64,000 nt of DNA, taken from the NCBI RefSeq assembly GCF_011074885.1, contig NC_054686.1, positions 372,001-436,000 of the forward strand, written 5' to 3'. The notes under the pieces were generated by a model, which ran no database searches, was not told where the DNA came from, and was given only the letters and a program-made list of their open reading frames with translations. Positions 7,480 through 29,867 of the stretch are shown piece after piece (within the stretch, counting starts at the first letter, position 1; the number at the start of each line of letters is the position of its first letter). The DNA comes from Brettanomyces bruxellensis. Its lineage: Eukaryota; Ascomycota; Pichiomycetes; Pichiales; Pichiaceae. The translations under genes and the position numbers were made by a program.

Positions 7480-7485
7480 ATCAAA

Positions 7486-11977: not shown

Positions 11978-13681
11978 CTATTGGCTACTCACGCGAACCG
12001 AATTTAAGGAGTCGCCAGGATGCTCTTCAGCCCACCTATTATATCTAACTAGAAGTTCTTTTTCTACTAAATGAGTTTCTTCCAATTGATTTCCTATAGT
12101 TAACCATCCAGGCCTGGTATTATGTTGACGACCGAATATCTCGAGTTTTTTAACTCCAGAGCCTGCTAGTCGTTCAATTATACCATAAATTTCATCTGGC
12201 TTTCTGGACGTTTCTCGTGTTGAAGACACCAAGATTTGAGGATCCATTCCTGGATTCAACCATTTAGGATTTCCCTTCAGGCCAACCAAAAGATGTTCCT
12301 TTGAGTGATTTAGCCAATGACCTGTTCTCCCTGTGCTTATTGTACGCACTAGCTGACTAGTTTTCACCCATGTTATTTGATTCACAACTCTATAGCCCCA
12401 CTTTTTTAGGAAGTCTTTACCCATTTCGATTGTTCTTCCTGTCACCCACAAGAGATACAAGCCTTCAACTTGTAGTTTATCCATTCTTAGTGATAACAAG
12501 TCATCGTCTTTCATACTGCTGTAGTTAAGGTTCATGTGGATCGTCCAACTTGGATCTGCAAGCACAATTCCCCAGTTGCTTCCTAAGACATTTAAATCCA
12601 GCTTTGTCACATCACATCGAATCCATTGCGGCGGTGTATTTTCCATTGCTGATGCATTAATGGCCTGTCCCCTCGTATAAAGGCCTGTTCTCAATGCTTT
12701 ACTTGATGCGTGGTCAGCAACTTTACGCCTTGTTTCGGAATCAGGTGGTGCCTCTGGCATGAGGAGGCCATAGTGCACATACCGGCAAGTGTTCATCTTA
12801 TGGCAAGTATCCAAATAAGAGCAGTCGCCCAATCGAATGTCTGTTTGTGGCTGTATAATTGGAATAAAGTGCATTTTCTCGTTGATACACTTCCCAATTG
12901 GGCTCCCGGAAGAAATGTTTGCGTTAGACTTAAGCTTGCAGTAATTTGTTGCACGATTAAAATCGATAAGCGGCGAAAGTTGTGTTGCATGATCTGCAAT
13001 CTCACAGCAATCATAAAATGGTTGGACTCTGGTTAGCAGACGTGATCTCTCCCTCATTAGCTGATGAGATGCGCATTCACTCTTTAGTAAAATTTCCATC
13101 TGCTGCAAGCGTCCAGATCTTGATGTAATGCTATATATACTGTCAGATTCGGATAAAGTTAGTTTTGACGTGTGCAATATTTTCTCTGGAAGAGTTTCAA
13201 TAACGTTCCACCGTCTTTTTGGAGTATAATCAGGACCCTCAACTAAATCCATGAGCATCTTTAACTGTTCACCTTTCTCGTTAGGAATTGCACCCTTCTC
13301 CTTTGGTTTCTTAACTTCCATATCCTTTTCGTCTAACAAGCGGGGCTCCTTTTTAGATAATGCACGTTCTTCTTTAGCAATGATTATGAGTGCCAGTCTA
13401 TTTATGTATGTGATTTTGTTGAAACATTTGAATGGATCTTCGTACATTAAATCAAGGGCATTTTCTGGACGGCATTCCAAAACATGACCATTTCCGATCT
13501 TGTTCAATAGCCTTAGATACTTTATAAATTGTTGCCACGAAACCCTGTCTTTTCCCTTGCTATAATTTGAAAAGATAAAGCAGAAATAAATCTCCGTTAT
13601 CGAGCCGTCAACCGGAACATTTGTCAATAGTGTGTTCCAGTCCAAAAGGAATTTCGTTATTTCACATGCCTTACGGTCCAT
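11978..13681 (-). CDS. IME4: mRNA N6-adenosine methyltransferase, MT-A70 (METTL3/Ime4) family
   Basis: 567 residues; S. cerevisiae Ime4 is 600. The Cys/His zinc-binding segment LGDCSYLDTCHKMNTCRYVHY (about residues 285-305) precedes the methyltransferase domain: CDVTKLDLNVLG, the SAM/adenine site written DPSW (residues 376-379) instead of DPPW, LLWVTGR, WVKTSQL, the positively charged loop RTGRTGHWLNHSKEH, KPDEIYG and LEIFGR. In yeasts the enzyme deposits m6A on meiotic mRNAs with Mum2 and Slz1. Every other conserved block is intact, so the motif change is not part of general decay. A divergent promoter of about 1.07 kb is shared with BRN1 copy A. Confidence 0.93.
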   Translation of the reverse strand: MDRKACEITKFLLDWNTLLTNVPVDGSITEIYFCFIFSNYSKGKDRVSWQQFIKYLRLLNKIGNGHVLECRPENALDLMYEDPFKCFNKITYINRLALIIIAKEERALSKKEPRLLDEKDMEVKKPKEKGAIPNEKGEQLKMLMDLVEGPDYTPKRRWNVIETLPEKILHTSKLTLSESDSIYSITSRSGRLQQMEILLKSECASHQLMRERSRLLTRVQPFYDCCEIADHATQLSPLIDFNRATNYCKLKSNANISSGSPIGKCINEKMHFIPIIQPQTDIRLGDCSYLDTCHKMNTCRYVHYGLLMPEAPPDSETRRKVADHASSKALRTGLYTRGQAINASAMENTPPQWIRCDVTKLDLNVLGSNWGIVLADPSWTIHMNLNYSSMKDDDLLSLRMDKLQVEGLYLLWVTGRTIEMGKDFLKKWGYRVVNQITWVKTSQLVRTISTGRTGHWLNHSKEHLLVGLKGNPKWLNPGMDPQILVSSTRETSRKPDEIYGIIERLAGSGVKKLEIFGRQHNTRPGWLTIGNQLEETHLVEKELLVRYNRWAEEHPGDSLNSVRVSSQ

Positions 13682-14750
13682 CTTGTGAAATACAAACTGC
13701 CCCTCTTACTATTCTTTGAAGAAAGGTTTATAGATTATTAAAGTATGTAAAGCATGATATACGTACGGATATCTGGCCCTATTAATAAAATTCAGAATTG
13801 AATTATAGGTATCAAACTGTTGATTGATTTTTTAACAAGCTCAATGAAATCCTTGATTTCCCCATTAGTGTTTTTTTAGAAGCACTATTGCGCTATACTT
13901 TAAAAGGGAGGATTTTAATTGATATTATGGGATACTTTCTTTCTCTCAGTAGTATTTTCTATGGGAACATCACGAAGAATTATATAAGAAAGCAACATTC
14001 CCCGAATTCATGATATAAATTCCTTTACTTTCAGTAATGATCTGTAGTCTGACACCTGCCAGCCGACGATTGGAAAAAAAACAGTTGAACCAATTTTCTT
14101 TGAGTTCCATATTAATGCATGAAATTTGATGAATCACAAGGTTATTATGTTTCTTTGTGGAACCCTCTTTAACAAAGCGCAATGCTTCTCAATAAAGGCA
14201 CCAGTAACTTGTTGCTGTGAAAGCTGTATATGATGTTTTGTGAATCACTTGATCCAATAATCCAAAGGCATATTTCTGAAATTATTACACCTCCAGTATT
14301 AATCCAATAGAATATTGCTTTTAGGGTTTTATTGGTAATGTATTTCTGACGCGTCTACGGCATAATTTTTTTCTCTTCTTCTTCTTTCCGTCTCGGTTCT
14401 TCCTATTGTTCCATTTTCGTTTCGCTTTGTTTTGTTTTAAGATTGCTTGTTTACCTTACTTACCTGCTGAGAAAAAATTGATTATCCATCAGATATCGAA
14501 ATTTATTTGCGACCTAGCACAGCTTCCTTCTTTCAAGGTTTTAATACACATCATTTGTGCTTCTGCATCACACTTCTGATTTCTTTACTCATAGATCGCT
14601 TTTTTGTTATTATTTATTGGCGTTAAGAGCTTGAAGGCGTTACGATAGCTAGAGGTATCTAAAAGGGTTTGTCATATAAGCTGTTTGGGTGTTGTGTTGT
14701 GTTGCGTTGTACATTTACTGCTAGGAAAGTATACAACGTGTTCCAATAGA
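13682..14750. other. divergent promoter region IME4/BRN1 copy A
   Basis: 1.07 kb, AT-rich. Contains a palindromic MluI box GACGCGTC (14348-14355), a repeated GTTGTGTTGCGTTGT stretch just before the BRN1 start, and no convincing coding frame (a 70-codon minus-strand frame at 13970-14182 looks random). Confidence 0.5.
14348..14355. promoter_or_regulatory. MluI cell-cycle box upstream of BRN1 copy A
   Basis: GACGCGTC contains the ACGCGT element bound by MBF (Mbp1/Swi6) in yeasts, about 400 bp upstream of the condensin gene. Condensin genes are cell-cycle regulated, so the site is plausible, but a single hexamer is weak evidence. Confidence 0.4.
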
Positions 14751-17054
14751 ATGTCTGGGCCGGCGGCTGGAATCAACACTAGTACGGAAACTGCAGTTTC
14801 TGTTACTAGTGAAAATTTTGAGCTATGGATACGAATGGCCACAGACAATAAGATAAATTCAACGAATAGCTGGGATTTCGCATTAATCGACTACTTTCAT
14901 GATCTTTCGATGTTCAAAGAAGGCGATGGTATCAATTTTCAAAAAGCATCAACTACATTGGATGGATGTGTGAAAATATATTCTTCGAGAATTGATTCGG
15001 CTGCTACAGAAACTGGACGTTTACTTTCAGGATTAAGTTCTAGTGAGTTGCCTGGTGGAAAAAATGATGGAAATAATGCTTCAGAAGAAGAATCAGATGA
15101 TGATGATGTTGTTGAGAAAAGGCGGGAGCAGCAGAGAAAATACCGAAAAAATAGAGCCAGGAATACTTTGGTTAGTAACTTTGATCAGATAAAAACCAAA
15201 AGCTTGGAAACTCAGTTTTTTGCAAACCCCATTTTCAAAAAGGCGTTGTCAGATTTTGATGAGGGCGGGTCCAAAAGTTTATTAATGAATATGCTCAAGA
15301 TGTCAAGTCAAGGTCAAGTTATGTTTGTCATTGTGGGAAAAACACCAGAATCAGTGTTAAACCCTGTAAACTGGAAAGACGATTCGGCGAAAGGTTCTGA
15401 ATATTGTTCTGACACACAGGCACCAATTTCTCCAAGTGTGCCGAATAACGACATGAAAGAACAAGCGGTTGTACATATTATTACAAATGATCAACAAGTT
15501 ACCAATATAGAGGAACCGAATGTTGAAACCGGAAATAATACGGATGAGGTGAAAAGCGTACCAACATCGGTTTCTAGTAAAGGTATTTCGATTTTAGGAG
15601 ATATGGCCTTACAAATGAAACATGATGCGCAGATATGTCCATCATTAAATTCTTTAAAGGGAATTGATGCTGGTGATACTAGTGTCACGCAAATATTGGA
15701 TCAAATTGGGGATATTTCTTCTGAACCGGAAGAAGGTGTGTTTAATGAAAATGAGAACGCCGAGGACGGTTTCGATTTTGATACCGACAAGGACAGTACA
15801 GGTAATTCAACTAAAATAAATAGATCCCAGTATTCGTTGTTTTTGGAAGAAGGTATGGGTAATGATGATCAGGATTCGACATTCAGAAGTTTGAATTTAA
15901 CAGGACTATTTGATGAAAATGCCACTGGTTTGGATGAAAATAATTATTCATCTGAGGCTGCTGATGATAGTGATAGGGCTGCAATTGCCAAATATTTTGA
16001 TAAGTTATCGGGTGATAATTGGAGAGGACCTGAATATTGGAAAATATCCAAGGTAAAGACATTTTTGAAAGATGAATATCATCAATCAGCACTTGATTTA
16101 GATGATAAAACCAAATTATCAGATGGTAAAAGAATAATACCAAAAAAGACTTTGCCTACCAAGAAGTCGCCATTTCTCGATTTTTTAAACGACAAGAACG
16201 ATGTTCAGGAGGAAGATATCTTCAAACCAGGTCAGATATCGAAAATAATGCTTCCTGAAAAGGAAATGGAAGTTAATCCCGAATTCAATTGTCTGCCGGA
16301 AGATTTTAAATTTACTACAAAGCGTCTAATATGTCTCAACTTAAAGCCGGACAGTAGAATCAACACAATCCTAACTAAAAGAAGAAAAGTCTTTGGTGAT
16401 ATATCGCGCGAAGACTCGACAAAAGTTGCAGATGAGTCTTTCTTTGCAGATGTCTACAAGGATACTGTGGAAACTGGTGTCTCGGATGATGATTTCTTTG
16501 GGGGAGACAATGATAATGATATGGAGTTTGGTAATGAGGATATGAATGATGATATGGATCCTAATGCTTCCTCTGCTAGTCATAAAAGTGGCTATGATGA
16601 TCTACCCGCAAATAATGTAGATGAATTTGAAGCACCGGTTGCTGCACTTCCAGAAACAAGAAAGCACACGAATGGATTAACATATGCACGGAAATCAAAG
16701 AGAGTCGATATACGAATGTTGAAGGAACGTTTATGGACTGCCATCGGACAAAATGATAAATGGACTATAAAGAAACGAAATAGTTCGGAACTCAAAGATG
16801 ATGAAAATTCTGCAATTACAGAGACGGACAAGAAAAGTGGTAATGATACGGCGGAGCGAAATGGCGCTGATGCGGTCGAATCCAAATTGAAATTAAGTGA
16901 GATTGTACGGACCACGGCTGATATGTACGATCCTCGTTCTCGGAAAGATTTATCGACAAGTTTTTATTTTATTTGTCTGTTACATCTGGCTAATGAGAAC
17001 AACTTAAGCTTGGAAGGTACCATGGACCGGAATGATATCATAATTAGTAGATGA
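14751..17054 (+). CDS. BRN1: condensin kleisin subunit Brn1/CAP-H (Barren), copy A
   Basis: 767 residues from the first in-frame ATG (14751); S. cerevisiae Brn1 is 754. The N-terminal kleisin domain is at about residues 22-95 (ELWIRMATDNKINSTNSWDF, ALIDYFHDLS, INFQKASTTLDG, TETGRLLSGL), which in Brn1 binds the Smc2 neck. A second block, NPIFKKALSDFDEGGSKSLL, follows. After a long acidic, Asp/Asn-rich middle come YWKISKVK (HEAT-subunit binding region), GLTYARKSKRVDIRMLKERLW and the C-terminal winged helix DLSTSFYFICLLHLANENNL, which binds the Smc4 head. Complete and uninterrupted. A second, diverged copy lies 7.3 kb downstream. Confidence 0.95.
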   Translation: MSGPAAGINTSTETAVSVTSENFELWIRMATDNKINSTNSWDFALIDYFHDLSMFKEGDGINFQKASTTLDGCVKIYSSRIDSAATETGRLLSGLSSSELPGGKNDGNNASEEESDDDDVVEKRREQQRKYRKNRARNTLVSNFDQIKTKSLETQFFANPIFKKALSDFDEGGSKSLLMNMLKMSSQGQVMFVIVGKTPESVLNPVNWKDDSAKGSEYCSDTQAPISPSVPNNDMKEQAVVHIITNDQQVTNIEEPNVETGNNTDEVKSVPTSVSSKGISILGDMALQMKHDAQICPSLNSLKGIDAGDTSVTQILDQIGDISSEPEEGVFNENENAEDGFDFDTDKDSTGNSTKINRSQYSLFLEEGMGNDDQDSTFRSLNLTGLFDENATGLDENNYSSEAADDSDRAAIAKYFDKLSGDNWRGPEYWKISKVKTFLKDEYHQSALDLDDKTKLSDGKRIIPKKTLPTKKSPFLDFLNDKNDVQEEDIFKPGQISKIMLPEKEMEVNPEFNCLPEDFKFTTKRLICLNLKPDSRINTILTKRRKVFGDISREDSTKVADESFFADVYKDTVETGVSDDDFFGGDNDNDMEFGNEDMNDDMDPNASSASHKSGYDDLPANNVDEFEAPVAALPETRKHTNGLTYARKSKRVDIRMLKERLWTAIGQNDKWTIKKRNSSELKDDENSAITETDKKSGNDTAERNGADAVESKLKLSEIVRTTADMYDPRSRKDLSTSFYFICLLHLANENNLSLEGTMDRNDIIISR

Positions 17055-17315
17055 TGCGCCAATTTTTATTTGTTTTGTCGTCTTTTTTATTTTATAGAAT
17101 ATGTATATTATAGGGGAAGGCTGCGTTCAATGTATTTTAATGATTGCACACATATGTTTTTGGTAGAGCATGCACGACTGTCCAAAGCATCTTATTTTTA
17201 GTTACGTTAAGTATTATTTTTTTCACATTAAAAATGGCACATAAGTTACATATAGCCACTTGTCAGTTTCATTAAAAGACAACAAACAGATCGACTACAA
17301 AATTTTCAAAAATAC

Positions 17316-19649
17316 TCACCATTCAGATTCTTTAGCCCCATGTATCGACTTGTTGACCTCCCCAACCGGAGAAATTAATCTCTTAGAGCCACCCTCCAAG
17401 AATGAGAACTTACTCTTTCTAATCTTCTCATAATCGTCGATGAACTTGACCTTCTGTAATGTAATTCCAATATCATCGAGACCATTCAACAAGCAATGCT
17501 TTCTGAAGTCTTCGACGTCAAAGTTGTCAACCAAAACAGATCCATCTGGGCCTTTGATTTGTTGATTTGGAAGATCCACAGTAAGCTCCTTCTTGGCAAC
17601 AGCCAATGGATAAAGCTTTTTCTCGATGACCTCCTGAGGAAGTCTGATTGGCAACAAACCATTCTTGAAGGAGTTGTTGTAGAAGATATCACCAAATGAA
17701 GGAGCAATGATGGATCTGATACCAAAGTCTTTCAATGCCCAAGGAGCGTGCTCTCTGGATGATCCACATCCAAAGTTTTTACCTGTTACCACCAAAATCT
17801 TAGCATGAGTGTATGGATCCACATTAAGAACAAAGTCCGTAGGAACCATTTTTCCGTTTGCATCTTTGGCAAATCTCGATTCGTAGAAGAGACCTTTCCG
17901 TAGACCGGTTCTCTTAATAGTCTTCAAGAACTGCTTTGGAATGATAGCATCAGTATCGATGTTCTCCTTTGTCAATGGAGCAGCCACAGACGTTAATGTA
18001 ACAAACTTCTCCATTCCAGATGACTTTCCATCCTTTGACTGTTCTGAAGAAATTTCTTCCGTAACCTTTGCGCTATCATCCACTCCATCGTGAGGAGCAG
18101 CTGGCTCTGCCAAGTCCTCATCAAGCTCACGCTTTTCAATTTGAAGCCTCTCCAATTCCTCAGCGCTACTAAGAGGAAGTTTTGGCTTATCGACGCTGTC
18201 AATATAGTCAAAGTCTCTAATGTCAGAGAAATGACCCAAGATTGCAGTTGCAGCAGCCATAGCCGGTGACATCAAGTGCGTTCTTGAAAGAGCACCTTGT
18301 CTTCCACGGAAGTTCCTGTTTGAGGTGGATGCGCATCTCTCGTATGGGTCCAAGATATCCGGATTCATACCTAAGCACATAGAACATCCGGCCTCTCTCC
18401 ATTCAAATCCAGCATCCTTGAAAATTTTGTCGAGTCCTTCTTCCTCAGCCTCCTTCTTAATTGCACCGGAACCTGGAACAACCAATGCTCTTTTAATGTT
18501 CTTAGCAATATGGTGTCCACGAGCCACCCTTGCTGCTTCACGAAGATCCTCAATACGGGAGTTTGTGCACGAACCAATGAAAATCTTATCCACGTAGATG
18601 TCCTTCAAAGGAGTGTTTGGCTTCAAGCCCATGTATTCCAAAGCGGCAATGCAACTACTCTTTGCGGAAGGATCTTCGATCGTAGCTGGATCTGGAACCT
18701 TTCCTGTGATAGGCAATGCATCCTGTGGAGAGTTACCCCAGGTGACAGTTGGAATGATATCCTTGGCCTGAATCACAACCTCACGATCAAACTTGGCTCC
18801 CTCGTCGGAATAAAGCGTTTTCCAGTATGCAAGAGCCTTCTCCCATTCAGCACCTCTTGGAGCCAATGGTCTTCCCTTAACGTATTCGAAGGTTCTTTCA
18901 TCAGGCTGAATCATACCAGCTCTTGCACCGGCCTCTATAGACATGTTACAAATAGACATTCTAGCCTCCATCGAAAGGTTTCTGATGGCCTTACCAGCAA
19001 ATTCAATAACGCAACCCGTACCACCGGCGGTACCAATCACGTGGATGACGTGCAAAACAAGATCCTTAGAGGTGATACCTGGCTCGAGATCACCTTCAAT
19101 CCGAATTCTCATGTTCTTTGATCTAGCCTGAATAATGGTTTGTGTGGCCAAAACATGCTCGACCTCTGAGGTACCAATACCAAATGCCAATGCACCAAAG
19201 GCACCATGTGTGGAAGTGTGAGAGTCACCACAAACAACAGTGGTACCTGGAAGAGTGAATCCTTGCTCAGGACCAACAATATGAACAATACCCTGTCTGG
19301 TATCGGTCATTCCAAAGAATGGAATGTTGTACCTTTTGACATTCTGCTCCAAAGTTTCCACCTGCAATCTAGAGTCTCCCTGCTTGATGAACGTGGAGAT
19401 GCTCTTGAAATTCTTTCTTGAGTCAGTAGGAATATTGTGGTCAACAGTTGCCAAGGTGCAGTCTGGTCTTCTCACAGTACGGCCTGCATTTCTTAAACCT
19501 TCAAATGCCTGAGGTGAAGTAACCTCATGAACCAAGTGACGGTCAATGTATAGAAGATATGATCCTGATGGGTCCTTGTGCACAACGTGCGCATCGAAAA
19601 CCTTATCGTATAATGTTCTAGGTTGTTTTTTAGCAGCTTCGGAAGACAT
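17316..19649 (-). CDS. LEU1: 3-isopropylmalate dehydratase (isopropylmalate isomerase)
   Basis: 777 residues (S. cerevisiae Leu1 is 779); start at ATG 19649, just before [14 protein letters not shown]. Aconitase-superfamily enzyme with the large and small subunits fused: the Fe-S half carries [12 protein letters not shown] and [10 protein letters not shown], whose cysteines hold the [4Fe-4S] cluster; an acidic linker follows; the swivel domain has [15 protein letters not shown]. It interconverts 2- and 3-isopropylmalate in the cytosol, the second step committed to leucine synthesis. Leu3-type sites about 240 bp upstream indicate control by leucine/isopropylmalate. Strong codon bias suggests high expression. 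Confidence 0.98.
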
Positions 19650-19886
19650 CTTAACAAAAGTACTTTTAAGTATACTCCTTTTGGACAAAGGGCTTTGATA
19701 TGTTTAGAGAAGAGACGCTTTCCCAAATCCCAATGAATAGGTAAAGAACATAGACTATTTATAAGAATGCGTGTATTGAAAATTTGGAACCGCCCTAAAT
19801 CTCTGGCAAATGACTATAATTACCGGGTGCTGGAGAAAATTTTCAGTCTCTTGCGGTATAAAGCACAATGACGAAATTTCCTGTCG

Positions 19887-19896
19887 CCGGTACCGG
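19887..19896. promoter_or_regulatory. Leu3 binding site upstream of LEU1
   Basis: CCGGTACCGG is an exact match to the Leu3 everted repeat CCGGNNCCGG and lies 238 bp upstream of the LEU1 ATG. Leu3 senses alpha-isopropylmalate and activates the leucine genes. Confidence 0.85.
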
Positions 19897-19903
19897 TCCT
19901 GCT

Positions 19904-19914
19904 CCGGTTTCCGG
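19904..19914. promoter_or_regulatory. second, wider-spaced CCGG pair beside the Leu3 site
   Basis: CCGGTTTCCGG differs from the Leu3 consensus by one extra spacer base. It lies 7 bp from the canonical site, so it may be a weak second Leu3 site or a site for another zinc-cluster factor. Confidence 0.45.
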
Positions 19915-20252
19915 AGAATTTACAGCCAATGAATATCTTGCTGGATGTCATTCGCGAGAGCGGAAGAAACTTACAGTTTAAATTTAAGGCCTACAAGCAC
20001 GCAGCTTATTAGATTCAAAAATACACATGGCCTTTTCTTGGTCAAAAAAGGATAAATATTCAATGTAATCAACGATCAAAAAAAAAAAGGTCAAAAATCT
20101 AAGAGAAAAAGAAAAAAAAGTGTAAATAAATAAGGAACGTATGAATCATCTTGGCTGTAGTTATTTTCAAACGCATGAAAATGCATCTTCCGTTAACCGG
20201 CTCATTTTTCACCTCTCGTTTTGGGATGAGTGAAAAAAAAAAAAAAAGGATT

Positions 20253-21617
20253 TTATTTGCCCGCACGTTGAATAAAATGTTTCAACAGGGCAACAGTGAT
20301 GCCAAGCAAAATTGAATACGAACCATATTTGACAATCTTAGCTTGTCTATTTTCGGTCCCTATACACACAGAATATGGGAGGTCAGATCTAAAAGAGACC
20401 ATCGTGTATAAAGGAATCCAGCGAGAAGGAAATAATCTTCCCAATACGTTGTCGACGTCTTTTCTGAGCAAAAATAAAGGTGACTGAACTTTTGTGGACA
20501 TCTCATAAAAATTATCTAACGCAAGCTTAAGAATGGCAACAAGATTTTGATGTCTTGTTGTGCTGTATTCTTCAAACGTGACCGCCCTGTTTCCGTCATT
20601 TTTCTCTAGCATCTGAAGAAGAACTCTGATATCCTCAAATCCACAATTCATTCCCTGACCGTAAAATGGTACCATTGAGTGTGCCGAATCCCCAATTAAA
20701 ATGCATTTATCTGTATTATGATAAGTACTACATGTAACATGCATTAGGGCATTTCTGGGATTGTGCAAAAATGCCTCCACAATATGATCTTCCCCAATTA
20801 GGGGAACTGCATCGGGAAAGTTGGTTGAGAAAAAGCTTTTGATTTTTTCTTTTGTATTCAACGATTCCATTAATTTCCATGGTCCAAAAACTGTACAAGT
20901 AAAAGATCCACCCATGTTAGGTAGTGCAATAAGCATAAAATATTTTCTCGGCCAAATATGGAGATGATTTGCATCGATAAGAAAAGATGAGTTAGGCCCT
21001 GCCGGAATTGAAAGTTCCAAATAGCACATGTCTATGTAAACTTGTTGATAGTCCATACGAGTATACTTCATAAGTGCACTCCTGACTTTTGAGTAACAAC
21101 CATCTGCTCCAATTATAAAATCAAAGTTTGCATATGACCTTTTGGAATTTTTGTCCAAGTATTCCACCTGAACACAATCCTCATCCTTCAAAATATGCAT
21201 ATTTAGAAACTTGCATTTAAAATTGAAGGTTATTTCGTTGGAGTTATTTTTATTGAACAACTCAATTTCATTGACAAGGCTTTTATTTAGCTTTGCTCTG
21301 TCGATTGAATTAATGTGCTCGCCATGTAGCCCATATTTCTGTGATTGCTGGTGACCGCTCAGATCATGAATCATTCTACCATACATGGGAATTATTTCGC
21401 TCAAAGAACGTTTGGCCATTTTTCCATCTACATATTTCATGGCTGAAATTCCTCTATCACTTACAGCCAAGTTAATTGATCTCAGCTTTGTGTCTTCGGT
21501 AGTTCTTGGGTCTGGTCTTAAGTCAAAAAGCGTAACTTTATATCCCTTATGGGCAAATCCTAGAGCGGCAAGAGACCCGACCGGGCCAGTGCCAATAATT
21601 GCAACCGTTTCAGTCAT
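20253..21617 (-). CDS. BNA4: kynurenine 3-monooxygenase
   Basis: 454 residues (S. cerevisiae Bna4 is 460). Class A flavoprotein: the N-terminal FAD motif VAIIGTGPVGSLAALGFA, GADGCYSKVRSAL in the middle and the FAD-ribityl motif LIGDSAHSMVPFYGQGMN near residue 310. A C-terminal hydrophobic segment (SYSILLGITVALLKHFI) anchors it in the mitochondrial outer membrane. It hydroxylates kynurenine with O2 and NADPH in de novo NAD synthesis from tryptophan, so this yeast probably keeps the oxygen-dependent pathway. It lies downstream of LEU1 on the same strand order, with no sign of co-regulation. Confidence 0.96.
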   Translation of the reverse strand: MTETVAIIGTGPVGSLAALGFAHKGYKVTLFDLRPDPRTTEDTKLRSINLAVSDRGISAMKYVDGKMAKRSLSEIIPMYGRMIHDLSGHQQSQKYGLHGEHINSIDRAKLNKSLVNEIELFNKNNSNEITFNFKCKFLNMHILKDEDCVQVEYLDKNSKRSYANFDFIIGADGCYSKVRSALMKYTRMDYQQVYIDMCYLELSIPAGPNSSFLIDANHLHIWPRKYFMLIALPNMGGSFTCTVFGPWKLMESLNTKEKIKSFFSTNFPDAVPLIGEDHIVEAFLHNPRNALMHVTCSTYHNTDKCILIGDSAHSMVPFYGQGMNCGFEDIRVLLQMLEKNDGNRAVTFEEYSTTRHQNLVAILKLALDNFYEMSTKVQSPLFLLRKDVDNVLGRLFPSRWIPLYTMVSFRSDLPYSVCIGTENRQAKIVKYGSYSILLGITVALLKHFIQRAGK

Positions 21618-22424
21618 ATCCTTAGTTGATAATACTGTTCAAAAATTTTCGATGGTTTGCTTATAAAATATCGTGGAGTTGATGCGTGTTTTGGAAATAA
21701 AAAGAGGATTGAAATGGGGAATGATCTTTATTTTTCTTCTCCAGTGGTGCTCTAAAGAATTTTTTTTTTTTTTACCTCTCGCTTTTCCCATATTTTTCTA
21801 CTTCGAAGCAGGATTTTCTATATCAGGCAACAAGTGGCGTAGTACTTTTGGCCGCCTTCTTGAATATAATTTTTCCCCTTTATTTCTTTTGATAGTATTG
21901 AGGATTGATCTTCCATTTGATGTTAGGTAAATAATCAACAAATTCAGAAATTTTTTAGATGAAACTTCAATTATGTCAGTACTGTAAGCAATCAAAATGT
22001 TTTAGTCATGACGGGTTATTTTTGACTCACTGCATTTTCGGAGCTCATTCTTCACCAATTAAAAAAATTTCAACTGAGCCTTTTAACTCGACCAATTTCA
22101 GTGGCATGCAAGTTTTTTGTAGGAAACCAAGCTTCGTAAGTGGACCAATCGCTCGGTATAACAAATAGATTATATCCTTTGTGATCGTGGTCCTACTACT
22201 TAATTTTTCGTCTGCGTCGATTGCGTCTGTAAGACGTCAAGACTACACCTATTCCAATTCCGCCATATCTCTTTTATCCAGGATGTATCCAAGTAACTAC
22301 GTTATTTATAGTAAGGGATTCCGATTCCATCTATTTATAGCGTTACTTCAAAATATTTCTTATTCACTCCTTCAAAGAAAAATGTAATTTATCTTAAAAC
22401 AAAGTAAGCATTTACATGAAGCCA
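21618..22424. other. intergenic BNA4 promoter / GLO3 3' region
   Basis: 807 bp, AT-rich with a T13 run near 21760. Four short frames of 65-85 codons occur; they overlap each other on both strands and resemble nothing. No RNA gene recognised. Confidence 0.5.
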
Positions 22425-23861
22425 TCACCTCAGAGCGTCCCTTAGGTAATCCCCAAGCTTCTTTCCTATTTTCTCTCCCTGCTCCTGTAAAGCCGCCTTC
22501 AAAACATTAATGTCCTGTCCAACATATTTTTGGGCAATTTCTGCCACTCTTTGCTCGATCTCTCCACCTTCAGCATTTGTACCCTCTAATTCATCCTCAT
22601 TGTTTCCATAATATTGAGATGATGAAATAGATTGGGCACCCGTGAAGGATTTAAGTCTTTCTCTTGCCTCACGATCTTTTTCCTTATCAAATGCGTTTAT
22701 ACCATAAAATTGATCCGACGATATACTCTTTTGACCGCCGAATCTCTTGGCAACATTTCCCGTATATTTAACATCCTTTGCTCTTCTGCCACGATTTGTA
22801 TCCTTTGCATTATCAGACGGGGAGGCAGCTGTCATACCGAATCCAAGCTTGGCAAACGATTGCCTTGTTTCGGTGATAGCTGGTTCCTCGGCCTGCTCAT
22901 TGTCTACAGAAGCAGTTGCAGAAGAATTCTTGCGAATACCTTTTCCAGCTGAGCCAACTTTAGATAATGTTAACGGGGAAACTCTTGTTGCAGTTTCAGA
23001 TTTCTTCGTTGTTTCAACACCAAACTCCTTCTCATTTATCTGTGGCTTAACGCCGAGCACCTTGGCCTCCTTTTCCTCATTCTTTGCTTCCTGCTCAAAT
23101 GCATCGAAGTCAATGTCGTCGTTGACCTTCTTAACGTGTAATCTTGATTTGTTTCTATTGGTAGCACCGCCTCCTAAGATATTTCTAGTCTTACGTCCAT
23201 TTCTCAACAATGATCCTCTCTTTGGCTTGCTGGTTAGACTACTAGTACTGGAAAGTTTGCGAGAGCTTGCAGACTTCGATGCGTCATCTGCGTGACCCTG
23301 CTTTTTGGATAAGTTTGTACTTGAAGACAGAGGTGAAGGTGTTGCAGAAGCCGAACCTGATGAGCTCTCCCATTTGGTAAAGAAGTCATCTGTGCTAGAA
23401 CTTGATGCCTTAATCTCGTCATCAGAAGAACTACCGTCATCCCATTCAAGAATTTTTGGATGTCTGATGGCATCATTAGCAGCCCGCTCCTCCAATTTCT
23501 CCTTGTAATTCTTGGCAATCTGATTTGTGTATTTCTCTTTTAATGGACGTGTTAAATATATTGATCCACCATTTTTGTTCAAAAACTCCTTGAATTTGTC
23601 GTTGCCGCCACATTTCATCATTCTCAATTGCTTGTAAGTCCACTTCTGATCTAAGGTAGAAGATTTGACAAAACTGATGTGCACACCCATATTTCTATGA
23701 CTTGCACTGCAATTCAGACACACAAATATACCGAATGGAATTGACGTCCAGGTCGCATTCCTGGAATCGCAATCAAAACATTTCTTGTTTGCTGATCTCC
23801 TTTGCAACTTAGTAAAGATCTTTTTGATCTCCTCCTTACTGGCAAAATCCTCTTCCCCCAT
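22425..23861 (-). CDS. GLO3: ADP-ribosylation factor GTPase-activating protein, COPI vesicle type
   Basis: 478 residues (S. cerevisiae Glo3 is 493). The N-terminal ArfGAP domain (about residues 9-125) has the zinc finger C-x2-C-x16-C-x2-C and the arginine finger in SASHRNMGVH. A Ser-rich and basic middle, which in Glo3 binds coatomer and cargo, is followed by the ArfGAP2/3-specific repeats SISSDQFYG and SISSSQYYG (about residues 385-435) and an amphipathic C-terminal helix. The protein stimulates GTP hydrolysis by Arf1 in Golgi-to-ER transport. The repeated S-S-x-Q-[FY]-Y-G motif distinguishes it from Gcs1 and Age proteins. Confidence 0.95.
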   Translation of the reverse strand: MGEEDFASKEEIKKIFTKLQRRSANKKCFDCDSRNATWTSIPFGIFVCLNCSASHRNMGVHISFVKSSTLDQKWTYKQLRMMKCGGNDKFKEFLNKNGGSIYLTRPLKEKYTNQIAKNYKEKLEERAANDAIRHPKILEWDDGSSSDDEIKASSSSTDDFFTKWESSSGSASATPSPLSSSTNLSKKQGHADDASKSASSRKLSSTSSLTSKPKRGSLLRNGRKTRNILGGGATNRNKSRLHVKKVNDDIDFDAFEQEAKNEEKEAKVLGVKPQINEKEFGVETTKKSETATRVSPLTLSKVGSAGKGIRKNSSATASVDNEQAEEPAITETRQSFAKLGFGMTAASPSDNAKDTNRGRRAKDVKYTGNVAKRFGGQKSISSDQFYGINAFDKEKDREARERLKSFTGAQSISSSQYYGNNEDELEGTNAEGGEIEQRVAEIAQKYVGQDINVLKAALQEQGEKIGKKLGDYLRDALR

Positions 23862-24315
23862 TATGTAGGTATCTCTTCTATTCTTTGTTTTTGATAAAAA
23901 GACGGAGCAGAAATGTACAATCTAAGAATTTGTATATACTGTAACTGCTTGTTTCGTGTGTTGACCAACATATTTGGTGTTCTTTTTTATTTTTTTCTGA
24001 CTTTTCGCTATTTTTTTTTCCCTCCCCTTGTCAGAGAATTTACGATTACTATTCTTTTTTTTCTGTGCTTTGTGGGCAGGCGAAAAAAAGCTAAAGATAA
24101 ATCCTGGATATTGGGTTCTAGACTATCGACGTAAACAGACGGCACTCTAAGTTTTCATGAAATGATGAATTAATTACCTGACGGCTTGTTCTCGGGTCGG
24201 ATGCTTAAGCTATTATTATTATTTTCCAATTATTCATCCTTTTTCATTTTCATGGTGGATTACGCTATCATAAGTTTGATAAGGTCCAATATATTTGAGG
24301 ATACATATATTTTTG
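23862..24315. other. divergent promoter GLO3/BRN1 copy B
   Basis: 454 bp, T-rich. No ACGCGT box, unlike the copy A promoter. A TTTCGTG heptamer at 23952-23958 (the reverse of the SBF element CACGAAA) is the only cell-cycle-like motif. No coding frame. Confidence 0.45.
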
Positions 24316-26297
24316 ATGTCATCATCAGAACAGGTCTTATACGAAAGTGCAACAAAGAGAAGGCGATTGCTGAACGATATTAAAGATGAGGATCGAAGTC
24401 TGGGAACGTTGCCGGATGATAGGTTAGAAAATATGAATCAAGCTGCCCGTAAGTTAGATTTTGAAGAAGCAATCAGAATGGCTACAAGCAATAAGATCAA
24501 TTCTAAAAATACATGGGATTTTGCGTTAATTGACTATTTTCATGATATGAATTTATTGCGTGGTCGGGATGGAACATCTATAAATTTCCAGAAGGCCGGT
24601 GCTACATTAGATAGCTGCATGAAGATCTTTTCTCATAGAATTGATTCTATTGTAGCAGATACGGGAAGATTATTATCTGGCCTTAATCAACGAAATGCTA
24701 CATCTGGCGGCTCTAAATCGGGTAACGATGTTTCTCAAGAGGAAAATACAATAGAAAATATAAGAAAGCGTGCAGCAAGAAATAAGAAACCTAAATTAAC
24801 CCTTCAAGATAGTTTCCATGATATCAAAATTAGGCATTATGATCAAGCATTAAACGTTGATCCTCTATTTAAGAAGGCGATTGCTGAGTTTGATGAGGGA
24901 GGTGCGAAGTCCTTATTGATGAATGTTCTTAAAATTAACTCGAAAGGTTTAATTGTTTTCGATGAGACATTATCGAAGTCATTACTTTCGACTCCATTTT
25001 CGGCTGATAATAATGAAACTCGTTGTGAACCCGATAAAGCTTCTCCTGATACATTGAAGAATGTGCAAGAATACTTATCAATGCATAAATTCAATGCTTC
25101 AGCAGAGTTTAAAAGCGCCACTATTTGTCGGTCAATGGGATCTCTTGTAAGTGCATTGGATGATACCGATACGGCAAGTACATTTATTGATTCCATTCTT
25201 CAGCCACAGGAAACCGGTAAGAACGTAAATGCTGAATTAGATTTAAATGATCCTGCCAATGTGGAAGAGCCTAGAGAATTGCTATCAGATGAGAATGATG
25301 ATGGACACCAAACTGCAGACAAGCATATTTCAGCAGGTCCTGATGATTTTGTCGGAAATGAATATGAAATTGAGAAAATTGATAAGGAGGCTTTATGTGC
25401 TCTCGATTCCAGCAATCCGAATTGGAGTGGCAGTAATACCAATTCATGGAAAGTTGAACTCTTCAAACGTAAAATGGGCAATACTCTTCGTAAAGAATTG
25501 ATGAAATCGGACCCGAATAAGGGCACTGATGAAATAGAAGTTTTGAGGAGTACAGGAGGTAATACGTTAAAAGGGGGTAAGCATCATGCCGTTATAGATT
25601 TTACGAAAGACTTCACGAAGAAAGAGGAGAGGACTTTATTTCGTAAAGGGAAAAAGAAGGTGTTACGTCAACCAAAGCTGGACAATAAGGTGTGTATCAC
25701 ATTGCCTGATGATCTACGATGGAATTCGGAAAGATTGTTATCCCTATTCGACAAGCCGGACAGTAAAATCAATGTGTTCAGAAAAAGAAGTCTTCAAAGT
25801 ACAAACGAAAACACACTTACGAATGCTGCTGGAAATGTTGATGATGTTGAATATGATGATATACCTGATGCCCCTGACTTGGAAATATCTTCCCATAATG
25901 AAAATGAAGAAGATATAGTAGTCGATAACGATATGCAAGGAATTTCTGGCGATTTCGACTTCAACATGCTGTTCAGTTCACAGGATGATTCAAATGGTAT
26001 TGGTCTTAACTACGCTAGAGCTTCAAAAAAGGTTGATATCAAGCTTTTAAAAGACAACATGTGTGGCAGTCTACTCTTTTGTTGAAGAAGAAGGACTCTT
26101 CTCTGTTAAGGTTAAGTGATATCATTAAAGACACTCTTGAGAAGTATAAATCAAAGCAAAAGGATGACATATCAACATCGTTCCTTTTTATCTGTATGCT
26201 ACACCTGGCCAATGAGCATGGGTTGCAAATGGAAGGTAATGAAGCGCATACAGATCTAACGATCAAGTCCCAGGAGGAAGCTATTACAGGTTCTTAG
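24316..26297 (+). pseudogene. second condensin kleisin (Brn1/CAP-H-like), copy B, frame interrupted near the 3' end
   Basis: Starts at ATG 24316 and is open for 589 residues to TGA at 26083-26085. The remaining homology continues in another frame to 26297. The N-terminal kleisin domain is strongly conserved (IRMATSNKINSKNTWDFALI, DYFHDMNLL, INFQKAGATLDSC, ADTGRLLSGL), as are DPLFKKAIAEFDEGGAKSLL, LNYARASKKVDIKLLKDN and, after the shift, ISTSFLFICMLHLANEHGL. Total span is 1982 bp, one short of a multiple of three. As written, the product lacks the Smc4-binding winged helix. Everything else looks constrained, so this may be a sequencing error, a recent null allele or recoding. It has a longer N-terminal extension than copy A and lacks copy A's linker before the winged helix. 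Confidence 0.85.
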
Positions 26298-26408
26298 CTT
26301 TATATTTAATCTATGATACATCTGCTGTCACAAGTACAAAGTCATTAACCAGTATGTTAGTTTACTATATAAAATTTGTTTTGCCGACAGAATAACCGAT
26401 CACTCTAA

Positions 26409-29400
26409 TCACTCTTCCCGATTGATTTCGGTTGTTTCTAAAGTATTTGTAGTATCCTGACTATCATCGGATGCATTGGCAAGAACTTTACCACGACTGT
26501 AGTATTCATCCTTTAATTGACTATTGACTTCATTGAAAAACGCGCGTGCTTTCTTTATAAACACAATCAATAAGAAAATTATCCAGATAGAGAAGCAAAG
26601 GATATTGCATAGTCTAATGGTCATACTTTGAGTTGCTAGGGAGACCCAATATTTTATCATTGGACTAAATTTAGTTCCTTCATTCTCCAATGGAGGAGAA
26701 AGTAGCCAATGGAAATTATCATCTGGATGTTTCCAAGCATAAATTGCTGCGTTCGTTAGCCATATAGCTGCAATCAAAAAGCTGACAATGAAGATTTGAT
26801 GCCTAATTTTAAATGAAATTGATAATCTCGGGTTAAAGGATATCACAAGGCCACTAACATAATTCATCGATATGGAAGTCAAACCTGCAAGAAGCACCCT
26901 ATATAACTGCAACACCCAGCCTCCATGTTGATTTGGCATACCCGCTAAATACTCATCAAAGTAGTTTCCTGGCAAAAGTAAACCAAAGATCAAAATGATT
27001 ACCTCCGTAAGCAAATGCATCACAAAAGTGAATCCCATTTTTACATATGGAGCCGCTTGTACCAAAATTGTTCTGCATCGAGAAAAGATATGTTTTGTCA
27101 CTTTCATTATAATGGAAGTATACTCATTAATTTTAGGCACCTTGTTATTTTCATCCTCATTTTGTAACTCCTCATTATCTGCTGGCTTGCTCTGCTGCTC
27201 TGTCATTATGTGTGTCGCAATATCAAAAACTTTTCCGAGTGTCACTATCATACAGACAACAATTGTACTTTTCCAGACATCTAGGGTAAAGATATCTGAA
27301 TCTAAACCCCAATTCGTTGATTTATCACCAAAGGACATACAAAGTTCAAAAAGAATGCCAACAAAGATACAGAAAGCATATATGAATAGCGTAATTAGCA
27401 TTGAAAAGGTCCACATCAATCCAAAAAGTGAGAATACCCGCTTTCTGAAATTTGGAGGGCGGTAAACAACAGTGTAAGTAGTTGCATTCAATGGCTCCTC
27501 ATCACCGTACGGATTGTACTTTTCTTCATCATCCACTAGAGGAGGAATTGGAGCTAGCAATTTGTCATCCTTGGTGACTGGTACAAATAATGTCCTAACA
27601 AATTTACGTCCAACCTGATCATTATCAGGTGCTCTCACGTAATTTCCGTCTGGAACAAAGCAGCAATTGACCTCTTTGTGTTCTTTAAAGAAATTTCCCG
27701 CCTCATGCTCGGTAACTGGATTTGAAAAGTCTGGCTTTTCATGGAAGTGTAGGGCGTGATTCAGCTTGTTCCTGTAAAGAACGTGACCTCTTTCAGACGG
27801 TATTTTTTCCCCTAATAGGAAGGATGATAACCTTAGTATTGAGCAAGAATACTTGAACACAAACTTCCAATAGTCAATAATTTTGTCCTTTGAAAAGGAT
27901 CCAACAAAGAAAAGAGCAAGATATCCGAGTCTTTCAAAGTTTGAAGCCCTTGTAACGGATGGTAATATCTTTACAGGGGAAAATAGCCTGATACCCCAAG
28001 TAACAATCGTAAATTCGATGTGTATGTATAAACTGTAGATTATTGCAGATAAGCCAATGTGACTAAGTTTGAGTAAGAATGGCCTCATTAGGGCATCGTG
28101 TATAAGCCTGATATTTGGGTCATCTGATGGACGAATGAAGAAAAGAACACCTTCCCGCAATATATTTGATCTAATCATACTGACGAAGGCAGCAAAGAAG
28201 TACATGAAGAATGTACCGATGAACCATAATGGCACATAGCTAAAATCAAGTGTTCCAAAAAGTGGCGGCTCTATTTTGTAGGTGTACAAGTTTTCATTGA
28301 AAAATGGCACTAAAGCGAACTCAACCTGATATCCACAAAATAATGGAAACACTAGCCATTCGATCATGACAAGAGCGAAAATCTTTAGCACACACACCAA
28401 TTCCAAAAGAACCGTGTATATTGAACGATAGCCGCCCGATAAAGGATTGCTTTGACTGCAAACGCTTTCCATTTTACGCATTATTAAAAGTATCAAGGAT
28501 AGAACAACACTAAAGCCAATTATAACAGTAGCCCTTCGCTCGAACAAATTGGTAGTTGGCGTCCAGTTAATCGTATTCAAGTACGCATTTTCACATGGAT
28601 AAACAAAATTCGAAAGAAAGAACCCAGTAATCTTTTGAACCACGACTTTCTCTGAAATCCAATTGTACAACTGCATCACGGTATTCGGAGCCTTTAACTC
28701 GTAAAATGACTTTGAAATGGGAATGTAGGCGTGTAAGAAAGTTGATGCCTTTGTTAGTAATGAAAGCAGAAGTCTTATAGCCATGTCAGCTATTCCGACG
28801 GTTATCATACCCAATAAAGTAGGAATTGTTTTCAAGCAAATTAAAACACCTGGTACAGCAACATCAATAAATGCAGTTGTCTGAAGAACAAATATAGGAC
28901 CTTTTCTACCATTGAAGAAGCCATTGTTTTCCTCACGACCCACATTGTCATTTTGAACGGCAGCATCTTCATCATTAATATCTTCATTCATCGCAGGTTC
29001 AGCAAGTAAATTATCGTCGTTGGCACGAAATTGAGCGGGTAAATCATGATTCCTATCAGGATTATTACGGTGCTCTTCTTCAAGCATTCTGTTCGCAATA
29101 TGAACGAGTTCTTGAATATCTTCCGGATCCATTTCATTGTTTTCATTGTTATGGCCATCAATATCACCCTCATCTACCACACCATTTTCATTTTGTTGAT
29201 TTAATCTTCGAAGTTGTCGTTGATGCAATATATCAAATATCTGATGCATCCGAGGCTCTGGCCCTATTTTCTTTTTGATAATTTTGTTGAAACCTTCATC
29301 ACTGAGTACCGATCCCTGGATGAGCATCATAGATCCCAATGCAAGTGTGTATTTACTAATCGTCATAAGACCCTTTAACCACGTATTATCGAAAATCAAT

Positions 29401-29867
29401 TGTAGTTTTTGAAAATTATCTGTCAAATCACTAGGTGTTCTTCCTGGTATCTCCTCGCCGTATAAAAAGCCATAGACGTAATCTGAATATGGAACAGTGC
29501 AGCCAATAAGCCAATCAAGATACCTGTCCACACAGGAGACAAATACTGGTACCTGTATCACTATGCACACAAGAGTAAGTATGCTAAGATAGGCGTGGTA
29601 CAAAATTACTTTGAAATGGGAAAACGCTCTACCGATAATAAGAGGAAAAGGTAGAACTTCTGGTGTATCTGGCTGATACACTGTTTTGAATGTGTATGGA
29701 GCGTTACAAATGTCGCAACGTTCTTTGTGTGAATGTTTCAGCCATGATTCCAAGCACTCTTGATGAATATATTTAATTGATCCACGGCATTTACAGGGAT
29801 GAAATAAAGGTGCATCATCTGTACCTTCACACCGGCAAATCCGGCAAACAGGAATATCTGTGGGCAT
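26409..29867 (-). CDS. SSM4: ER/inner nuclear membrane E3 ubiquitin ligase Doa10, RING-CH type
   Basis: 1152 residues (S. cerevisiae Ssm4/Doa10 is 1319). A RING-CH finger occupies residues 8-58: CRICRCEG, CKCRGSIKYIHQECLESWL, CDIC, in C4HC3 order. An acidic Asn/Glu-rich cytosolic loop (about residues 220-315) and many membrane segments follow, as in the 14-span Doa10 family. The enzyme ubiquitinates misfolded cytosolic, membrane and nuclear degrons with Ubc6/Ubc7 for ERAD-C. Its upstream neighbour is an SSA-type HSP70, a chaperone class that delivers Doa10 substrates; the adjacency may be chance. Confidence 0.93.
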   Translation of the reverse strand: MPTDIPVCRICRCEGTDDAPLFHPCKCRGSIKYIHQECLESWLKHSHKERCDICNAPYTFKTVYQPDTPEVLPFPLIIGRAFSHFKVILYHAYLSILTLVCIVIQVPVFVSCVDRYLDWLIGCTVPYSDYVYGFLYGEEIPGRTPSDLTDNFQKLQLIFDNTWLKGLMTISKYTLALGSMMLIQGSVLSDEGFNKIIKKKIGPEPRMHQIFDILHQRQLRRLNQQNENGVVDEGDIDGHNNENNEMDPEDIQELVHIANRMLEEEHRNNPDRNHDLPAQFRANDDNLLAEPAMNEDINDEDAAVQNDNVGREENNGFFNGRKGPIFVLQTTAFIDVAVPGVLICLKTIPTLLGMITVGIADMAIRLLLSLLTKASTFLHAYIPISKSFYELKAPNTVMQLYNWISEKVVVQKITGFFLSNFVYPCENAYLNTINWTPTTNLFERRATVIIGFSVVLSLILLIMRKMESVCSQSNPLSGGYRSIYTVLLELVCVLKIFALVMIEWLVFPLFCGYQVEFALVPFFNENLYTYKIEPPLFGTLDFSYVPLWFIGTFFMYFFAAFVSMIRSNILREGVLFFIRPSDDPNIRLIHDALMRPFLLKLSHIGLSAIIYSLYIHIEFTIVTWGIRLFSPVKILPSVTRASNFERLGYLALFFVGSFSKDKIIDYWKFVFKYSCSILRLSSFLLGEKIPSERGHVLYRNKLNHALHFHEKPDFSNPVTEHEAGNFFKEHKEVNCCFVPDGNYVRAPDNDQVGRKFVRTLFVPVTKDDKLLAPIPPLVDDEEKYNPYGDEEPLNATTYTVVYRPPNFRKRVFSLFGLMWTFSMLITLFIYAFCIFVGILFELCMSFGDKSTNWGLDSDIFTLDVWKSTIVVCMIVTLGKVFDIATHIMTEQQSKPADNEELQNEDENNKVPKINEYTSIIMKVTKHIFSRCRTILVQAAPYVKMGFTFVMHLLTEVIILIFGLLLPGNYFDEYLAGMPNQHGGWVLQLYRVLLAGLTSISMNYVSGLVISFNPRLSISFKIRHQIFIVSFLIAAIWLTNAAIYAWKHPDDNFHWLLSPPLENEGTKFSPMIKYWVSLATQSMTIRLCNILCFSIWIIFLLIVFIKKARAFFNEVNSQLKDEYYSRGKVLANASDDSQDTTNTLETTEINREE

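What the first reader, a model, noticed from the sequence alone, without database searches (positions are those of the whole stretch)
14751..26297. Two diverged condensin kleisin (BRN1/CAP-H) genes 7.3 kb apart
Copies A (14751-17054) and B (24316-26297) both carry the N-terminal kleisin domain, the FKKA-DFDEGG(S/A)KSLL block, the YAR-S-K-VDI block and the C-terminal winged helix. The N-terminal 75 residues look roughly 60-65% identical by eye, while the middle regions barely align, so the duplication is old. Yeasts normally have one essential Brn1 and one condensin. A proximal duplicate with separate divergence could give condensin variants with different loading, timing (for example meiotic) or partners. 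They flank LEU1-BNA4-GLO3 in the same orientation, suggesting tandem or segmental duplication.
Basis: partly seen in the sequence, partly recalled or inferred. Interest (0 to 1): 0.8.

Follow-up and report, generated by a model that had tools for sequence, protein, structure and literature searches.

The report
Ancient second condensin kleisin in Brettanomyces
This yeast carries two very old versions of the protein that closes the chromosome-folding condensin ring, and trees suggest that baker's yeast and the methanol yeasts each kept a different one of the two, so their 'same' BRN1 genes are probably not true counterparts.

Summary
The window is from Brettanomyces bruxellensis and holds two condensin kleisin (BRN1/CAP-H) genes 7.3 kb apart, the only two found in the genome. 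Copy A is intact (767 aa). An unnamed public protein 95% identical to B (P0121) is full length. Five further A/B pairs of the Brettanomyces clade (two in named species) also have full-length B, so B is not just a decayed private copy. AU tests reject a Brettanomyces-only duplication (p 7e-61) and a Pichiaceae-only one (p 0.027; 0.003 with ten long or fast rows removed). A/B pairs in Wickerhamomyces ciferrii and Babjeviella also split between the same two clades. Best reading: one duplication in an ancestor of most budding yeasts, then differential loss. S. cerevisiae BRN1 is B-type; sampled Komagataella, Ogataea and Pichia BRN1 are A-type. Brettanomyces B groups with the B-type (99/98), but an A-side attachment is not excluded (AU p 0.19). 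SMC2, SMC4, YCG1 and YCS4 are each found once, so two kleisins would share one partner set. Functional specialisation is inferred, not shown.

The parts
14751..17054 (+). Copy A: intact condensin kleisin, 767 aa, 'A-type' (groups with the sampled Ogataea/Komagataella/Pichia kleisins)
   Evidence: 98.6% (756/767) identical to P0001
14814..15038 (+). Copy A N-terminal helical domain (SMC2-neck side, role recalled), with almost no tail before it (32 residues before NKIN)
15828..15917 (+). A-type linear motif (QYSLFLEEG...LNLTGLFDE), matched in 10 of 29 A-type rows, 0 of 31 B-type rows, 0 of 9 outgroup rows
15987..16367 (+). Copy A YCG1-binding (safety-belt) segment, residues 413-539, with NWRGPEYWKI (latch) and LPEDFKF (buckle)
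   Evidence: match to PDB 5oqo Brn1 segment; the names safety belt, latch and buckle are recalled
16677..17039 (+). Copy A C-terminal winged-helix region (SMC4 side)
   Evidence: match to PDB 6qj2/6qj4 over residues 643-763; pLDDT 84-93 in residues 651-670 and 711-767, lower between
17316..19649 (-). LEU1 (isopropylmalate dehydratase), between the copies
20253..21617 (-). BNA4 (kynurenine 3-monooxygenase), between the copies; recalled as the neighbour of BRN1 in S. cerevisiae
   Evidence: adjacency (YBL098W/YBL097W) recalled, one search returned nothing
22425..23861 (-). GLO3 (ArfGAP), divergent neighbour of copy B
24316..26085 (+). Copy B: open frame of 589 aa as assembled; 'B-type' kleisin with a KRRRLL tail, N-domain and safety-belt region, ending before the winged helix
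26088..26297 (+). Copy B winged-helix coding stretch (profile match 26088-26267), in a different frame from the copy B open frame; the B frame agrees with intact relatives up to about 26061

Best explanation
A and B are two condensin I kleisins from one duplication in an ancestor of most non-Dipodascales budding yeasts, followed by differential loss. Sampled Saccharomycetaceae (S. cerevisiae BRN1 included) and most sampled CTG-clade rows are B-type. Sampled Komagataella, Ogataea, Pichia and C. boidinii rows are A-type, as are Debaryomyces fabryi and Scheffersomyces xylosifermentans. Brettanomyces, [Candida] arabinofermentans, Babjeviella and Wickerhamomyces ciferrii have both. Mechanism (inferred): both proteins bridge the same SMC2-SMC4 heads and bind the same YCG1 and YCS4, so the cell could build two condensin rings that differ only in the kleisin. 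A is the slow-evolving, probably general and essential copy; it lacks the N-terminal tail and has a conserved linker motif. B keeps a basic N-terminal tail and evolves faster with a looser latch, as expected of a specialised (perhaps meiotic or dosage) kleisin. Shown here: two loci, the age of the duplication, partner genes found once each, and the domain differences. Not shown: expression, binding, or a division of labour. In this assembly copy B is also broken before its winged helix, so in this strain (or haplotype, or by assembly error) B would not close the ring.
For: Only two Cnd2 loci in G000. Six A/B pairs in the Brettanomyces clade: P0001/P0121, P0003/P0122, P0004/P0125, P0005/P0123 (B. 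nanus FOA43_003349/003353), P0006/P0124 (B. naardenensis), P0007/P0126. Careful IQ-TREE, 69 rows: A-type 95/89, B-type 99/98, ingroup 100/100. Without Brettanomyces/arabinofermentans B: 96/89 and 100/99. With three slow B rows: B 100/98. AU rejections: Brettanomyces A+B p 7e-61, Pichiaceae p 0.027; Phaffomycetales p 6e-6, W. ciferrii pair p 3e-74; Babjeviella pair p 1e-4; slow rows, Pichiaceae p 0.003, plus Komagataella/Pachysolen p 0.010. S. cerevisiae Brn1 fragments fall in the B side. Residues before NKIN: 36 or fewer in 24 of 26 scorable A rows (29 rows in all), 74-126 in 9 of 9 outgroup rows, 49 or more in 25 of 31 B rows. SMC1-4 one each, YCG1 one, YCS4 one. B evolves faster: 59.0% (340/576) against 77.7% (595/766) identity to the nearest relative. 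Intact B (P0121) has a confident winged helix matching Brn1.
Against: Forcing Brettanomyces/arabinofermentans B onto the A side costs only 12.4 lnL (AU p 0.19), so orthology with S. cerevisiae BRN1 is likely, not proved; inside the B side its exact place is weak (40/17 and 70/84). The Pichiaceae AU test on all rows is modest (p 0.027). The N-terminal loop insertion is not a clean marker: CTG-clade rows and Saccharomycopsis keep the short loop. Several B rows are long. Six of 31 B rows have short tails, and tail lengths rest on annotated or predicted starts. No genomes of other yeasts could be searched; 'loss' in single-copy yeasts rests on lists capped at 120 of 1771, 331 and 1423 hits. No expression data.
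Confidence: 0.7

Rival explanations
1. Duplication inside Pichiaceae or on the Brettanomyces stem; B evolved fast and is drawn to the other clade by long-branch attraction.
For: B rows are long. AU with all rows for a Pichiaceae clade is only p 0.027, and attachment to the A side as a whole is not rejected, p 0.19. A and B are neighbours here, as a local copy would be.
Against: Brettanomyces-only origin rejected at p 7e-61. Rejection of a Pichiaceae or wider Pichiales clade is stronger with fast rows removed (p 0.003 and 0.010). B is shared with [Candida] arabinofermentans. The other yeasts split into the same two clades without any Brettanomyces B row.
Confidence: 0.15
2. Copy B is decaying in B. 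bruxellensis: a gene on its way out, with no present function in this strain.
For: Frame break before the winged helix, fast evolution, loosened latch. The P0121 cluster lists only the Logan source, no NCBI-annotated protein.
Against: Full-length representatives with conserved buckle and winged helix in P0121 (cluster of 26 member sequences, 6 contigs; only the representative was seen) and in five further pairs. The rest of the window copy is an uninterrupted 589-aa frame.
Confidence: 0.3
3. The frame break is an assembly error or one allele of a heterozygous site, and an intact copy B exists in the living strain.
For: It lies at a short dinucleotide repeat (sequence), a usual place for indel errors. 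A 95% identical full-length protein is in public data.
Against: No reads were available. The window B differs from P0121 at 30 of 589 residues (four of them next to the break), so it may be a distinct allele with its own history.
Confidence: 0.5
4. The second copy came by introgression or horizontal transfer from a yeast with B-type BRN1 rather than by ancestral duplication.
For: Brettanomyces B groups with the B side.
Against: It is not nested in any sampled donor family. B is shared with [Candida] arabinofermentans, and A/B pairs exist in Wickerhamomyces ciferrii and Babjeviella.
Confidence: 0.05

Closest known systems
S. cerevisiae Brn1 (condensin I kleisin; PDB 6yvd, 6yvu, 7q2x)
   Same: Same Pfam family and domain order; copy B most likely its ortholog; both copies match it over N-domain and safety belt
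   Different: S. cerevisiae is recalled to have one Brn1; here two. Copy A lacks the N-tail and has an extra linker motif. Window copy B is cut before the winged helix.
Vertebrate condensin I / II (CAP-H and CAP-H2)
   Same: Two condensin kleisins with shared SMC2/SMC4; the CAP-H N-tail regulates loading and CAP-H2 lacks it (PMC9797191, passages)
   Different: There each kleisin has its own HEAT subunits (PMC10246852, passages). Here YCG1 and YCS4 are each found once, and both kleisins are of the CAP-H family (PF05786), not CAP-H2.
Cohesin Scc1 / Rec8 pair (and Arabidopsis NSE4 proteins)
   Same: Two kleisins for one SMC set, one general and one specialised (recalled; abstracts of PMC7138332 and PMC6596448 seen in the listing)
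   Different: Different SMC complexes; no expression evidence here that B is meiotic

Membership tests
Condensin I kleisin (Brn1/CAP-H, PF05786) | Cnd2 profile over the whole protein | tested here: met
   A 422.8 bits over 77-764; B 254.1 bits over 79-601 of 764
Condensin I kleisin (Brn1/CAP-H, PF05786) | N-terminal helical domain that binds the SMC2 neck | tested here: met
   Both align to the PDB Brn1 N-domain, incl. 6q6e; binding itself not testable
Condensin I kleisin (Brn1/CAP-H, PF05786) | YCG1-binding safety-belt segment | tested here: met
   A matches 5oqo at 1.1e-8, B at 2.4e-5; latch spacing altered or missing in Brettanomyces B
Condensin I kleisin (Brn1/CAP-H, PF05786) | C-terminal winged helix that binds the SMC4 cap, in copy A | tested here: met
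   matches 6qj2/6qj4; confident C-terminus in the model
Condensin I kleisin (Brn1/CAP-H, PF05786) | C-terminal winged helix, in the window's copy B | tested here: not met
   frame stops at 26085; winged helix in another frame. Met in the intact relative P0121
Condensin II kleisin (CAP-H2) | CAP-H2 profile in place of Cnd2 | tested here: not met
   only PF05786 reported for A, B and the downstream piece at E 0.001
Second, B-type condensin kleisin orthologous to S. cerevisiae BRN1 | B groups with Saccharomycetaceae/CTG kleisins to the exclusion of A-type | tested here: inconclusive
   99/98 and 100/98 support but AU p 0.19 for the A-side alternative
Meiosis-specific kleisin (Rec8-like role) | expression or requirement in meiosis | not testable with these tools
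   genome keeps two Rad21/Rec8_N matches, one TP6A_N (SPO11-family) and one NDT80-family match; no expression data

The most novel reading that the evidence does not exclude
Budding yeasts ancestrally had two condensin kleisins, and the essential role has been kept by different paralogs in different orders. BRN1 of S. cerevisiae and BRN1 of Komagataella/Ogataea/Pichia are then paralogs, not orthologs. Brettanomyces still runs both, making two condensins that share SMC2, SMC4, YCG1 and YCS4 and differ only in the kleisin, one with and one without an N-terminal tail.
Probability: 0.55. Interest if true: 0.85.

Novelty: new variant of a known kind. Interest (0 to 1): 0.7.

Why it matters
Fungi are usually treated as having a single condensin with one kleisin (my knowledge; a 2023 review reports that fungal genomes lack condensin II accessory subunits except in Monoblepharidomycetes, PMC10246852, passages). 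An old second kleisin, with the essential copy differing between lineages, would mean that BRN1 results cannot be carried freely between S. cerevisiae and the Pichia-type yeasts. It also offers a natural experiment on what the kleisin alone contributes, since the SMC and HEAT subunits are held constant, including whether the N-tail controls loading in yeasts as it does in vertebrates.

Tried and rejected
Condensin II: no CAP-H2 profile match. Co-duplicated partners: not found. The SMC hinge search gave four matches, identified as SMC3, SMC1, SMC4 and SMC2; it did not show SMC5 or SMC6, so its reach is limited. YCG1: one match over the cut-off. Cnd1: 11 matches. Two fall in YCS4 (identified), one in YCG1; five are adaptins and one is PDS5; the last two are below the cut-off and were not examined. 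Recent tandem or segmental copy: the only direct repeat of 25 nt or more found in 14300-26500 is 68 nt at 71%. Clean indel marker for A versus B: looked for in the N-terminal loop and not clean. Promoters: one ACGCGT at -402 of A, none at B; among 25 promoters the divergent neighbour of A (same site) and two others also have one, so not used. Full-length structure: mean pLDDT 55.7 (P0121) and 52.0 (A), only end domains usable. Literature: eight searches aimed at kleisin duplication, Brettanomyces condensin or BRN1 paralogy showed no report among the titles listed (listings were capped, for example 20 of 397, 20 of 38 and 20 of 10,204). Three papers were read as passages. One search, for the S. 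cerevisiae BRN1-BNA4 adjacency, returned nothing, so that adjacency is recalled.

Sampling limits: the first tree used 291 rows (289 proteins from three capped searches plus two window frames); the careful tree used 69 hand-chosen rows, leaving out most unnamed proteins. One search left out 8 B rows on purpose; one search left out 10 rows (five Brettanomyces B, one Brettanomyces A, P. inconspicua, W. pijperi and both Babjeviella). Labels BspX, BspY and Bano are mine for unnamed proteins, and that the two proteins of such a pair come from one species is inferred from tree place or equal contig length. The A/B row lists were drawn after seeing the first tree, so the AU tests on groups named by genus or family are cleaner than the one on 'A-type + B'. 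Order names such as Pichiales are recalled.
Full report
What is there. The window lies in a 13.1-Mb, 9-contig yeast genome. Copy A is 98.6% identical (756/767) to the unnamed public protein P0001, and the nearest named protein is Brettanomyces bruxellensis HII13_004367, so the organism is B. bruxellensis or very close. Copy A (14751-17054, +) is a complete 767-aa condensin kleisin; copy B opens at 24316 (+). A genome-wide six-frame search with Pfam Cnd2 gives three matches, all at these two loci. LEU1, BNA4 and GLO3 lie between them on the other strand.

Copy B is broken in this assembly. Its frame ends at 26085 after 589 aa, and the winged helix that should follow is coded in another frame (profile match 26088-26267). 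The unnamed public protein P0121 (667 aa; representative of a cluster of 26 member sequences on 6 contigs, Logan source; only the representative was seen) is 94.9% identical (559/589) to the window frame and carries the winged helix. Whether the break is an allele, a real loss in this strain, or an assembly error cannot be decided without reads.

Copy B is not a recent or private copy. The N-terminal domains are 68% identical (51/75); a global alignment of A residues 1-640 with B gives 35% (187/536), and the only direct DNA repeat found is 68 nt at 71%. Six A/B pairs of the Brettanomyces clade were found: P0001/P0121, the near relative P0003/P0122, B. nanus, B. naardenensis, and two unnamed pairs (P0004/P0125, P0007/P0126). 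All six B proteins are 608-669 aa long. For four of the six pairs the two proteins list the same longest-contig length (15,720; 64,946; 262,925; 3,303,233), and so do the two [Candida] arabinofermentans proteins (1,544,913), which suggests linkage. This is inferred from lengths, since the protein database gives no gene order.

The duplication is old. A FastTree of 291 kleisins split budding-yeast kleisins into two clades, apart from Trichomonascus/Geotrichum-type yeasts and other fungi. A careful mixture-model tree of 69 chosen rows gives A-type 95/89 (98/93 without one basal unnamed row), B-type 99/98, and their union 100/100. A-type holds Brettanomyces A, Ogataea, C. boidinii, Ambrosiozyma, Pichia, Pachysolen, Komagataella, Debaryomyces fabryi, Scheffersomyces xylosifermentans, one Babjeviella protein, and one W. 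ciferrii protein with W. mucosus and Cyberlindnera. B-type holds Brettanomyces B, the second proteins of [Candida] arabinofermentans, Babjeviella and W. ciferrii, W. pijperi, Saccharomycopsis, Zygosaccharomyces, Lachancea, Eremothecium, and Candida, Metschnikowia, Yamadazyma and other CTG-clade rows. Fragments of S. cerevisiae Brn1 join the Saccharomycetaceae in the B side (quick tree).

Tests. Holding Brettanomyces A and B together is rejected (delta lnL 125, p 7e-61); all Pichiaceae together is rejected more weakly (39, p 0.027). Phaffomycetales together (88, p 6e-6) and the two W. ciferrii proteins (312, p 3e-74) are rejected, as are the two Babjeviella proteins (56.5, p 1.2e-4). With ten long or fast rows removed the Pichiaceae result is stronger (42.5, p 0.003; with Komagataella, Pachysolen and one more row, 29.9, p 0.010). 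Without any Brettanomyces/arabinofermentans B row the two clades remain (96/89 and 100/99). Against: placing those B rows with the A side as a whole costs only 12.4 lnL (p 0.19), and their place inside the B side is weak. So the age of the duplication is well supported, and orthology of Brettanomyces B with S. cerevisiae BRN1 is likely rather than proved.

Anatomy. Both copies have the N-terminal helical domain, a YCG1-binding segment and the region before the winged helix. A-type proteins have almost no N-terminal tail: of 29 rows, 26 could be scored and 24 have 21-36 residues before the NKIN block (exceptions 58 and 213), against 74-126 in 9 of 9 outgroup rows and 49 or more in 25 of 31 B rows. 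These lengths rest on annotated or predicted starts. Brettanomyces-clade B tails carry a KRRRLL or KRRLL block in five of six distinct proteins. A linker motif around QYSL...LTRLFDE is matched in 10 of 29 A rows (all from Brettanomyces, Ogataea, [Candida] arabinofermentans and Ambrosiozyma), 0 of 31 B rows and 0 of 9 outgroup rows. In vertebrates, deleting the CAP-H N-tail speeds loading and permits it in interphase extracts, and the same paper says the tail is much shorter or missing in fungi (PMC9797191, passages); that statement fits A-type better than the outgroup fungi here, and carrying the role over to yeasts is my inference. Brettanomyces B evolves faster than A: 59.0% against 77.7% identity to the P0122/P0003 pair, tree paths 0.83 against 0.21.

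Partners. SMC1, SMC2, SMC3 and SMC4 are each found once by hinge search, YCG1 once and YCS4 once. The other Cnd1-profile matches examined are adaptins or PDS5; two matches below the cut-off were not examined. So any second ring would share partners with the first. The meiotic toolkit is at least partly kept: two Rad21/Rec8_N matches, one TP6A_N (SPO11-family) and one NDT80-family match. That makes a meiotic role for B possible but does not argue for it directly.

Structure. AlphaFold models have low-confidence linkers, but intact B (P0121) has a confident C-terminal winged helix (pLDDT 84-93 over residues 581-660), and its best solved matches are S. cerevisiae condensin Brn1 chains and the C. 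thermophilum Brn1 C-terminal domain. Copy A also has a confident C-terminus.

Mechanism, marked by status. Shown: two kleisin genes, an old duplication, partner genes found once each, domain and tail differences, and a frame break in this copy of B. Inferred: both kleisins once made, and in most of the Brettanomyces clade still make, alternative condensin rings; A is the general copy; B is specialised or dispensable. Unknown: expression, binding, timing. Literature: eight searches of open full text showed no report of this paralogy among the listed titles, which does not exclude one in journals not held or below the listing caps.

Noticed in passing
window 11978-13681 (-): METTL3/IME4-type m6A methyltransferase (300.8 bits to human METTL3, 6ttp) whose catalytic motif reads DPSW where METTL3 reads DPPW in the same alignment; it is the divergent upstream neighbour of copy A.
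   Followed up: partly
P0023 (Pachysolen tannophilus A-type kleisin, 956 aa): Precomputed domains list PF06127 besides the kleisin domain, with 213 residues before NKIN: a fusion or a gene-model error.
   Followed up: no
P0139, P0238 (unnamed B-type kleisins): Precomputed domains list PF06278 besides PF05786; recalled as a CAP-H2 N-terminal family, so perhaps only cross-matching of kleisin N-domains.
   Followed up: no
L010 (G000:C7:820004) and L012 (G000:C6:1026631): Two adaptins (PF01602) also score against the Cnd1 profile, one of them (209 bits) above YCS4 itself (151 bits).
   Followed up: yes
window 14349-14354: An ACGCGT (MCB-like) site 402 bases before copy A, none before copy B; also present in two other promoters of the window, so weak.
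   Followed up: partly
window 26409-29867 (-) and 7480-7845 (+): A RING-variant protein of 1152 aa (PF12906; recalled as the DOA10/SSM4 kind) beside copy B and, by eye from the translation, ribosomal protein S26.
   Followed up: no
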